Below, piece by piece: positions 11,057 through 16,264 of a stretch of 64,000 bases of DNA. The stretch spans positions 1-64,000 of the forward strand of contig JAJPJR010000047.1 in the NCBI GenBank assembly GCA_021324165.1, read 5' to 3'. A program made the position numbers and the translations under genes. The number at the start of each line of letters is the position of its first letter. Positions within the stretch are counted from its first letter, which is position 1. Origin of the DNA: Armatimonadota bacterium. GTDB lineage: Bacteria; Armatimonadota; Fimbriimonadia; Fimbriimonadales; ATM1. The notes under the pieces are model-generated. The model saw only the letters and a list, made by a program, of their open reading frames with translations. It had not been told where the DNA came from and made no database searches.

Positions 11057-11472
11057 TCGGCAGGTGTCCCGCCATTGTTGATTGGGTGCCGCGGACAGGC
11101 CCGTTAGGGTTTGTCCGCGTTTTGTTGACTGTGTGCCGCCGACGGGCCCGTAAGGGTTTGTCCGCGTTTTGTTTACTGCGTGCCGCGGAAAGCGAATGGC
11201 ATGATTGAAGCGCGTCGCATGGTTGGAGAATGGGCGAAGAAACGCGCACGAGATGAAATTATTGCCTGAGCTCCTCTGCCGCCGATGGCAAACGGAAGAG
11301 AAGCTTGGGACCCTATGAGTGGGTCGGGACAAGCGGGAACGAAAAATTTGTGCTTGTTCGACGAATCACGGATAGCACATGGTGGATAGTCACATTCCCT
11401 GCATAGGAGACCGCGAACAAGCACGCGTGACGCGGCAGGGCGATCTTCAGACGCGGAGCGGTTTGCAAAAAA
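11057..11472. other. Gene-free stretch, 416 bp
   Basis: Apart from the 47-bp tandem repeat in its first third, I see no supported gene, RNA or promoter. Short open frames on the minus strand here are low-complexity readings of the repeat. Confidence 0.6.
11086..11194. repeat. 47-bp tandem repeat, 2.3 copies, hairpin-forming
   Basis: Unit 1 is 11086-11132, unit 2 is 11133-11179, and a partial third begins at 11180 (GTGCCGCGG). Each unit begins GTGCCGC, contains GGGCCCGT or GGCCCGTTAGGG, then TTTGTCCGCGTTTTGTT. In unit 1, GCGGACA (11091-11097) pairs with TGTCCGC (11112-11118). The trailing GTTTTGTT could let the hairpin work as a terminator for the gene ending at 11056. Confidence 0.75.
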
Positions 11473-13965: not shown

Positions 13966-14867
13966 TACACCCTCACACTCGCATCCAAGAACGACGCCAA
14001 GTCGGCTTCGCTGATCTCCGGTTCGCCCGGGGATAGATTATTAAGGCGACCTTCCAAAATCCACTTCTCCAACAGCTCAACCTGATCGAACAGATGATCG
14101 AACGAATCCACAATATATAGCAGCGGCTGGTAATGGTGAATTTCGAAATACTGATTCACAACCCACTCCATTTGAAACGGATACCGCTGCACATCCGGCG
14201 ATTCCAAACAGTGCGATATCTCGCCGAACGATGAAAGCAGACCGCTGCCATACACTTTCAACTCCGAACCCGAACGCATCAGCCCGAACTCGATGGTGAA
14301 CCAGAAAAAGCGCGCCATCCCTTTGATGATGCTCTCGACATTCTTCACGCGCTGCTCTTGATCGCGAATCTCCTGCGCGTGCTCGGCAACCGAACGCGCC
14401 ACCTCGCCGAAACGCACCAAAACGTCCGCAAAACGGCGATCGGTGTGCATCGGCACATGGCCCGCAACGTCGTGAAAAATGTCGGGCTCGGGAAGATAGT
14501 CCAAAGAGTTGATGTCGCGAATGGTAACAGTGGTTGGAAATGCGCGCGTTCGCAAACAGTCGAAAAAAATGTATGCGGGCACGTAGCCGCTTACGGCTTT
14601 CGCAGCAAACCCGCTCAGCGGCTGCAGAAACTGGTTGATCTCTTCCAGGCGCGGGATGCGGTCGGGATTCAGCGCGAGGTTCGCAACGCCTTGCATGAAC
14701 TTCGGGTGAGCGAACTTTTCCCACTTCGGCCGGATGCGGGCATAAAGCCTGCGCCAGGTTTCCTGGTTCTCCTCGCTATACAGCTCATAGGGCTGGCGGA
14801 TGTACAGCTCGCCGTTTTTCTGTGCCTCTTCGATGAAGGGGGCTTTGGTGGTGGTCAGTCCAGCCAT
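13965..14867 (-). CDS. phhA: Aromatic amino acid (phenylalanine) hydroxylase
   Basis: A 300-residue protein of the pterin-dependent hydroxylase family, close to the usual length of bacterial PhhA. The 2-His-1-carboxylate iron site is visible: PDIFHDVAGHVP (two His about residues 130 and 135) and FTIEFGL (Glu about 190). It would convert phenylalanine to tyrosine using tetrahydropterin and oxygen, usually for catabolism. The start MAGLTTTKAP has a Shine-Dalgarno AGAGAGG 6 nt upstream and CATAAT or TATCAT beyond it. Its 3' end is fused by a one-base overlap to an unknown gene. A 7-bp repeat tract lies 62-110 bp upstream. Confidence 0.93.
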   Translation of the reverse strand: MAGLTTTKAPFIEEAQKNGELYIRQPYELYSEENQETWRRLYARIRPKWEKFAHPKFMQGVANLALNPDRIPRLEEINQFLQPLSGFAAKAVSGYVPAYIFFDCLRTRAFPTTVTIRDINSLDYLPEPDIFHDVAGHVPMHTDRRFADVLVRFGEVARSVAEHAQEIRDQEQRVKNVESIIKGMARFFWFTIEFGLMRSGSELKVYGSGLLSSFGEISHCLESPDVQRYPFQMEWVVNQYFEIHHYQPLLYIVDSFDHLFDQVELLEKWILEGRLNNLSPGEPEISEADLASFLDASVRV

Positions 14868-14911
14868 CGGTACCTCTCTATTATGATAGATACTGACGGG
14901 CGATCTGCTCG

Positions 14912-14928
14912 TATAATAGGTGATGATG
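14912..14928 (+). promoter_or_regulatory. TATAAT box with adjacent ATG pair
   Basis: A perfect TATAAT (14912-14917) is followed by 5 nt and ATG at 14923, with a second ATG at 14926. The -35 region is poor. By the pattern of this window this looks like a leaderless start, but the frame it opens ends at 15001 after 26 codons, one frame away from the large gene at 15014. Confidence 0.5.
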
Positions 14929-14977
14929 GAAGCCAAAAGCCAAAAGCCGAAAGCCGAAAGCCGAAAGCCGAAAGCCA
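14929..14977 (+). repeat. 7-bp tandem repeat, seven units
   Basis: Units of AAAGCCG or AAAGCCA repeat at a strict 7-bp period: six clean units (14936-14977) and one diverged unit before them (14929-14935). Because 7 is not a multiple of 3, gain or loss of a unit shifts any frame read through it. It separates the putative leaderless start at 14923 from the secreted protein gene at 15014. Confidence 0.85.
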
Positions 14978-15013
14978 AGGCTGAGACGAATCAGCCGGCT
15001 TAGAGTCCTCGAG

Positions 15014-16264
15014 ATGTGCGCCTTGAGCCTGTTTTACGCCGCGGCGGCGGCCCAGCAACAGTCGGTGGTTTCCAGCCCCCACGTTGCGGGGCTGACGTGC
15101 GATCCGGCTACCAAGCAGCATTCGGTTGTGGTTGGGTTTTCGGTGCAGCCTTCCATCCCCGGTTCCACCTACCTATGGACGTTCTCAGGCTGCGGCGCGA
15201 CGCCGTCATCCAGCACGCAGGAGAGGCCGCTCGTCACCTTCAGCACTCCGGGCGAGGCGACGGCAAACGTAACCGTAACGATCGGCAACGACGTGCATCA
15301 GTATTCGGGGAAGGTGTATCTGATCGGCGGACCTCTTTTGATAACGCAGTCCGGCAGAAGCCAAGATCGCGAAGGGCGGGTATATCCGAACAGCCTGAAT
15401 GAGTGGCAGCCGTTCATTCTCGACTACTTCAACTACAGTCTGCGCAATGGCCGACCCGAAGGAGCGCAGTTGGCGAACACGATCCATGCCGAAGAGATCT
15501 GGGCGCAGCCGGAGGGTACGACGTTTCAATGGATCAAGACGGGGCCGATAGATTTCATGGTAGATCCGAGTGAGTCTTCGACGTTCGTTGATCTGTGCGC
15601 GAACGGCCGGAGCGCGCGCGGCGGAGCGACGATCTCGTTGGTGTATTCGCTGACCAAAGACGGCCATACGGGAAGTGTGATTGATTCATCAGACGAATAT
15701 CGCGCCAAAACTTCGATCCCCGATCCTGGCTACCGGAAGATTACATGCCACAAGCCGGATCACGTGACGGATGTGGGTCAGGCAGTAGACGTGAACCAAC
15801 AGGGCTCGGCTCCGAATTGGCTTTGGTCGAATTCGGACAAGCACGTGATGGAGTTGTTCCGTCAACTCGATCCGTTCAAAGAGGTTGAAGTACAGGAGCG
15901 ATTCCCTCCAAGCGGATTTCCGCCGACGACGTTTGATGACGGGCAGCCTTTGTCCAATTTCCGTTGGAACGGCAACCCATCTTACGCGGGCTTCTGGACT
16001 TCTGGCAGCACAGAGTACAACCTGCCGCCGCCGAACGATCACCAGCCGGGATACAATTACCACGCGCGATTCACCGACTACATCGGCTTCAAGAACTGGC
16101 ACAGCACTATTGCCCGGCCTATCGGAGGAGGTATAGCTGTTCTGACATTCACGCACGAGTACTACGCTGCGACCGAAAGTGTGAGCCTATCCGCTTTTGG
16201 CATCTATGTAGGCCGCTACACGGCAAAGTGCTATACCGATGGCACGACACATACTGGAGACTAA
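15014..16264 (+). CDS. Secreted protein, unknown
   Basis: A 416-residue protein. From ATG 15014 the N-terminus is MCALSLFYAAAAAQQQ, a short export signal lacking a basic n-region. The frame is open upstream to 14927, encoding an Arg-rich stretch (RLRRISRLRVLE), which would complete a normal signal peptide but offers only non-ATG starts such as CTG 14981. An Ig/PKD-like N-terminal part (SVVVGFSVQPSIPGSTYLWT, LVTFSTPGEATANVTVTIG) is followed by a region I cannot assign. The next gene begins 2 bp after the stop, so the pair is an operon. Expression may depend on the repeat tract upstream. Confidence 0.75.
   Translation: MCALSLFYAAAAAQQQSVVSSPHVAGLTCDPATKQHSVVVGFSVQPSIPGSTYLWTFSGCGATPSSSTQERPLVTFSTPGEATANVTVTIGNDVHQYSGKVYLIGGPLLITQSGRSQDREGRVYPNSLNEWQPFILDYFNYSLRNGRPEGAQLANTIHAEEIWAQPEGTTFQWIKTGPIDFMVDPSESSTFVDLCANGRSARGGATISLVYSLTKDGHTGSVIDSSDEYRAKTSIPDPGYRKITCHKPDHVTDVGQAVDVNQQGSAPNWLWSNSDKHVMELFRQLDPFKEVEVQERFPPSGFPPTTFDDGQPLSNFRWNGNPSYAGFWTSGSTEYNLPPPNDHQPGYNYHARFTDYIGFKNWHSTIARPIGGGIAVLTFTHEYYAATESVSLSAFGIYVGRYTAKCYTDGTTHTGD

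What the first reader, a model, noticed from the sequence alone, without database searches (positions are those of the whole stretch)
14912..15030. 7-bp repeat tract one frame shift away from switching on a secreted protein
Seen: TATAAT, 5 nt, then ATG ATG at 14923, seven 7-bp units (14929-14977), and the secreted protein from 15014. The ATG frame and the protein frame differ by one base (15014-14923 = 91). Losing one unit (or gaining two) puts them in the same frame with no stop, giving a long basic n-region before MCALSLFYAAAAA, which otherwise lacks one. Present state: the start makes only 26 codons. Inference: phase variation by slippage.
Basis: partly seen in the sequence, partly recalled or inferred. 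Interest (0 to 1): 0.6.

Follow-up and report, generated by a model that had tools for sequence, protein, structure and literature searches.

The report
Seven-base repeat beside a secreted-protein gene
A short run of seven-base repeats really does sit just before the gene of an exported protein and could in principle switch it by slipping, but the same repeat turns up between genes in many unrelated bacteria and nothing found here shows that this copy acts as a switch.

Summary
TATAAT lies at 14912, ATG ATG at 14923, a 97% pure 7-bp tract (6.7 units) at 14930-14976, and a 416-codon secreted-protein ORF (p15) at 15014. The frame arithmetic is right: 6 or 9 units fuse ATG14923 to p15 without a stop; 7 units stop after 26 codons.

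The inference of phase variation is possible but not shown. The unit (GCCRAAA) has no stop in any frame, so every such tract is at most two units from a fusion. A tract placed 37 nt before ordinary gene starts in this contig meets the same open-frame and upstream-ATG conditions in 13% of cases. The same heptamer forms arrays in at least 118 places in many phyla, with unrelated flanks and no preference for gene starts. None of 27 such arrays near an ORF start has the switch layout.

A non-AUG start at CTG14981 would give a normal signal peptide without the tract. No repeat-number data for this species could be found.

The parts
14930..14976 (+). tandem heptamer tract, 6.7 units of GCCRAAA (first two spacers A, the rest G)
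   Evidence: TRF; period scan; unique in own genome
14912..14917 (+). TATAAT, likely -10 element of a promoter towards p15; no good -35
   Evidence: sequence; the consensus scan found no full sigma-70 pair
14923..14928 (+). ATG ATG, candidate leaderless or near-leaderless start, out of frame with p15 at 7 units
   Evidence: gap 5/8 nt against the 6-7 nt cluster in this genome
14978..15013 (+). in-frame upstream codons of p15, RLRRISRLRVLE, with CTG at 14981 as a possible non-AUG start
15014..16264 (+). p15, secreted Ig/PKD-like protein; the ORF finder starts it at ATG15014
   Evidence: ORF; homologs; weak PKD hits in homologs; N-terminal Ig-like beta domain in the model
14971..15001 (+). hairpin AAGCC-AA-GGCTGA...TCAGCC-GGCTT that begins in the last repeat unit
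   Evidence: the fold of the whole leader is no better than shuffles (z 0.08)
13968..14867 (-). phhA, aromatic amino acid hydroxylase, divergently transcribed neighbour
   Evidence: Biopterin_H 6.6e-46; found in 38 of 41 genomes

Best explanation
The tract is a heptanucleotide microsatellite of a widespread, recurrently born type (GCCRAAA)n. It arose, presumably by replication slippage, in the non-coding stretch between the divergent genes phhA and p15. It is probably transcribed as part of the leader of p15 from the TATAAT at 14912 (inferred). p15 is most likely translated from a start downstream of the tract, either ATG15014 or a non-AUG codon in the same frame such as CTG14981, which would give the ordinary signal peptide MRRISRLRVLEMCALSLFYAAAAA|QQQ. 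On this reading a change of unit number would alter leader length but not the frame of p15, and the possibility of an in-frame fusion to ATG14923 is incidental. Shown: tract, uniqueness, absence in relatives, recurrence elsewhere, frame arithmetic. Inferred: promoter, start codon, lack of function.
For: The same heptamer forms arrays in at least 118 stretches of bacterial genomes from Bacteroidota to Streptomyces, with unrelated flanks. By a crude gene call these lie in codirectional (18), convergent (11) and divergent (6) gaps, or inside ORFs (20), so they are not tied to gene starts. 0 of 27 arrays near an ORF start show the switch layout, and 13% of ordinary gene starts would by chance. On the - strand the tract gives an equally open in-frame extension of phhA, to 337 aa from TTG14978, though phhA relatives start at the usual place with their own -10-like box and mostly a ribosome site. 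The tract is absent at phhA in 29 relatives. Homolog L004 has a signal peptide of like length from a TTG start, as p15 would have from CTG14981. Heptameric repeats are reported to be over-represented in many bacterial genomes and strongly so in intergenic regions of Xanthomonas and Nostoc (PMC4692102).
Against: ATG15014 has no ribosome-binding sequence and no basic n-region, and no ATG, GTG or TTG lies upstream in frame in the present allele. CTG starts are rare and this one lacks a spaced ribosome site. The tract is nearly pure and unique in its genome, and lies exactly between a promoter-like box plus ATG and a secreted protein, which is where contingency tracts lie.
Confidence: 0.5

Rival explanations
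1. NeuO-type translational phase variation: translation starts at ATG14923/14926 at or near the 5' end of the mRNA, runs through the tract, and reaches p15 only when the unit number is a multiple of three. The assembled 7-unit allele is OFF.
For: Open reading at 6 and 9 units with a strongly basic n-region before the hydrophobic core; TATAAT just upstream; -10-like boxes 6-7 nt before gene ATGs in 6 of 63 genes suggest that leaderless starts are used in this genome; neuO of E. coli K1 works this way with AAGACTC repeats and is ON when the number is divisible by 3 (PMC13001214).
Against: The layout meets a 13% chance expectation. The gap is 5 or 8 nt rather than 6-7. Only 6.7 units. No variation data. 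p15 homologs and the tract are not linked elsewhere.
Confidence: 0.23
2. Lost or misread start: p15 is a decaying gene whose start was damaged when the tract expanded, or the assembled unit number is wrong and the true genome carries a fixed in-frame 6 or 9 units.
For: The p15 family shows decay in relatives: L006 has stops and a frame break in its signal peptide, L003 has an internal TAG. The genome is a draft of 83 contigs.
Against: p15 itself is intact over 416 codons. A 47-bp tract fits within short reads, so a miscount is not especially likely.
Confidence: 0.17
3. hmwA-type tuning: the tract lies in the 5' leader just after the -10 box, and unit number alters transcript level or leader function stepwise, not the reading frame.
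For: In H. influenzae hmw1A the heptamer tract abuts the P2 -10 box, lies in the 5' UTR, and more units mean less transcript and protein (PMC8262952). The position here is alike.
Against: No expression data. Leader folding is no better than shuffles (z 0.08). Few units compared with 13-24 in hmw1A.
Confidence: 0.1

Closest known systems
neuO of phage CUS-3 in E. coli K1 (AAGACTC heptanucleotide repeats in the 5' coding region; PMC13001214)
   Same: 7-bp unit, stop-free tract near the 5' end, frame restored at multiples of three units
   Different: neuO repeats are inside a proven ORF and vary from 3 to 53 among strains with a known phenotype; here start codon, variation and phenotype are unproven and the tract is 6.7 units
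hmw1A/hmw2A promoter heptamers of H. influenzae (ATCTTTC; PMC8262952)
   Same: 7-bp tract between a -10 box and the gene of a secreted protein
   Different: hmwA tracts are longer and proven to change transcript level; none of this is tested here
Intergenic heptameric microsatellites of bacteria (GGGAATC in Xanthomonas, GGGGAYT in Nostoc; PMC4692102)
   Same: Heptamer arrays between genes, of variable length
   Different: Other unit (GCCRAAA); single copy in this genome, not dispersed

Membership tests
Phase-variable (contingency) locus with a translational switch, NeuO type | Tandem repeat with unit length not divisible by three | tested here: met
   Period 7, 6.7 units, 97%
Phase-variable (contingency) locus with a translational switch, NeuO type | Tract lies inside the ORF after its true start codon | tested here: inconclusive
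   Open only at 6 or 9 units; start codon of p15 not determined; layout expected by chance in 13% of genes
Phase-variable (contingency) locus with a translational switch, NeuO type | Unit number varies between cells or strains | not testable with these tools
   One genome per species; no reads; no same-genus genome among the relatives listed; own-species records may be left out of genome contigs
Phase-variable (contingency) locus with a translational switch, NeuO type | Expression of the protein changes with unit number | not testable with these tools
   Needs reporters or proteomics
Intergenic heptamer microsatellite of bacteria | Pure heptamer array outside known coding sequence | tested here: met
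   Between phhA (start 14867) and ATG15014; whether p15 really begins at 15014 is open
Intergenic heptamer microsatellite of bacteria | Same unit recurs elsewhere without shared flanks | tested here: met
   118+ stretches in many phyla, flanks unrelated
Intergenic heptamer microsatellite of bacteria | Many copies dispersed in the same genome (Xanthomonas/Nostoc type) | tested here: not met
   Only one array in the own genome; several in same-order genome G140

The most novel reading that the evidence does not exclude
A NeuO-like heptamer switch with a leaderless start that turns export of an Ig/PKD-like secreted protein on and off in an uncultured bacterium (probably of the order Fimbriimonadales), a group for which I know of no described phase variation.
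Probability: 0.2. Interest if true: 0.5.

Novelty: new member of a known kind. Interest (0 to 1): 0.25.

Why it matters
If the switch were real, it would be a simple contingency locus outside the usual host-adapted pathogens. If not, it is a useful caution: tracts of stop-free heptamers in front of genes look like frame switches by arithmetic alone, and the same GCCRAAA unit recurs in unrelated bacteria.

Tried and rejected
Dispersed family in the own genome: none. Tract conserved upstream of phhA: no. Shared flanks that would make the arrays a mobile element: none seen. Named close relatives of p15 in genome contigs: none. Structured leader RNA: no. Function of p15 by Pfam or PDB sequence: none; the predicted model is confident mainly for an N-terminal beta domain, and the Ig-fold matches (TM at most about 0.4) say no more than 'Ig-like'. 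A full sigma-70 promoter: not found. Frame break in homolog L006 as a sign of family-wide phase variation: rejected, because there is no repeat there and the break looks like decay.

Full report
What is there. Between phhA (- strand, start 14867; Biopterin_H 6.6e-46) and a 416-codon ORF, p15 (15014-16264 +), the window holds TATAAT (14912), ATG ATG (14923) and a 47-bp tract of 6.7 heptamers (14930-14976, 97% pure). With 7 units ATG14923 gives 26 codons; with 6 or 9 it reads MMEAKSQKPKAESRKP...RLRRISRLRVLEMCALSLFYAAAAAQQQ. The tract is the only one of its kind in the 2.33-Mb draft genome.

How much the frame relation means. The unit GCCRAAA contains no stop in any frame and shifts the frame by one per unit. 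Any ATG before the tract is therefore 0, 1 or 2 units from any gene behind it. I measured the remaining conditions on 113 ORF starts of this contig: an ATG within 30 nt before an imaginary tract that reads openly into it, and an open gene frame between a tract ending 37 nt upstream and the start. They hold in 13% of cases, or 29% if GTG and TTG count. On the other strand the present 7-unit tract already extends phhA in frame to a TTG at 14978 (337 instead of 300 aa). The relatives' phhA start at the conserved place behind their own -10-like box, mostly with a ribosome site. That extension is a built-in control: an open frame through the tract that most likely means nothing.

What the tract is. 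Flanks are unrelated and often degenerate into GCTAAAA or GTTAAAA units. By a crude gene call on 86 loci (the own locus among them) 18 arrays lie in codirectional, 11 in convergent and 6 in divergent gaps, 20 inside ORFs, 25 at contig or locus edges and 6 undecided. That is no preference for gene starts. Of 27 with an ORF start within 150 nt, none has an ATG-tract-gene layout like the one here. In the phylum 4 of 291 genomes have more than three units; G140 has several dispersed arrays. In 29 relatives with sequence at phhA none has the tract. This is the pattern of a recurrently born microsatellite. Heptamers are reported as over-represented simple repeats in bacteria, with GGGAATC and GGGGAYT as studied cases (PMC4692102).

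ATG15014 has no ribosome-binding sequence and MCALSLFYAAAAAQQQ has no n-region. In the p15 frame the preceding 12 codons are RLRRISRLRVLE, net +4. Random shuffles that stay open reach this in 7%, and open frames across the window in 9%, so it is suggestive only. Homologs in same-order genome G009 (27-34% identical) mostly have normal signal peptides, one from a TTG start (MRCYWVPASILALSPLLGWAQGA). So the true start of p15 is probably upstream of 15014. But CTG14981 would give MRRISRLRVLEMCALSLFYAAAAA, an ordinary length, without the tract; the tract is not needed to explain the basic residues. In this contig -10-like boxes cluster 6-7 nt before gene ATGs (6 of 63 genes; none at gap 5 or 8), which suggests that leaderless starts occur here. 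ATG14923 and 14926 have gaps of 5 and 8, near but not at that spacing.

Mechanisms. (a) Incidental microsatellite in the leader, p15 started after it: 0.5. (b) NeuO-type translational switch, present allele OFF: 0.23. (c) Damaged start or miscounted tract: 0.17. (d) hmwA-type tuning of the leader by unit number: 0.1; in hmw1A the tract also abuts a -10 box and lies in the 5' UTR (PMC8262952). No repeat-number data from the same species could be found, so (b) and (d) cannot be tested here.

The protein. p15 has no Pfam match; two homologs match PKD weakly. The model is good mainly for residues of about 20-110, an Ig-like beta sandwich, and the fold search returns many Ig domains with low TM-scores. 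'Secreted, Ig/PKD-like' is as far as this goes.

Organism. Not named by the tools. The phhA of a named uncultured Fimbriimonas MAG is 67% identical, in the range of family f4 of the same order (64-70%). A Fimbriimonadales (Armatimonadota) genome is therefore likely, by inference.

Verdict. Observation confirmed. Interpretation possible, not favoured. Ordinary class of sequence with an interesting but chance-compatible position.

Noticed in passing
L006 (reverse complement 240-330) and L003:1504-1548: Two of the five p15 relatives are broken: stops and a frame break in the signal peptide of L006, an internal TAG in L003. The family seems to decay in this order.
   Followed up: partly
window 14971-15027: An 11-pair hairpin (AAGCC aa GGCTGA / TCAGCC GGCTT) starts in the last repeat unit; ATG15014 itself sits in the loop of a second small hairpin (15008-15027).
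   Followed up: partly
window 1-64000 plus L173: -10-like hexamers cluster 6-7 nt before gene ATGs (6 of 63 genes), a sign of leaderless starts in this genome.
   Followed up: partly
window 14868-14978, - strand: The tract read on the other strand gives phhA an open in-frame extension (MAFGFRLSAFGF...), a likely source of misannotated N-termini.
   Followed up: yes
G140 (same order; L044, L052, L053, L172): Several dispersed GCCGAAA arrays, some at contig ends, in one genome of the order.
   Followed up: partly
window 11075-11189: A 47-bp unit repeated 2.4 times (88% alike), not examined.
   Followed up: no
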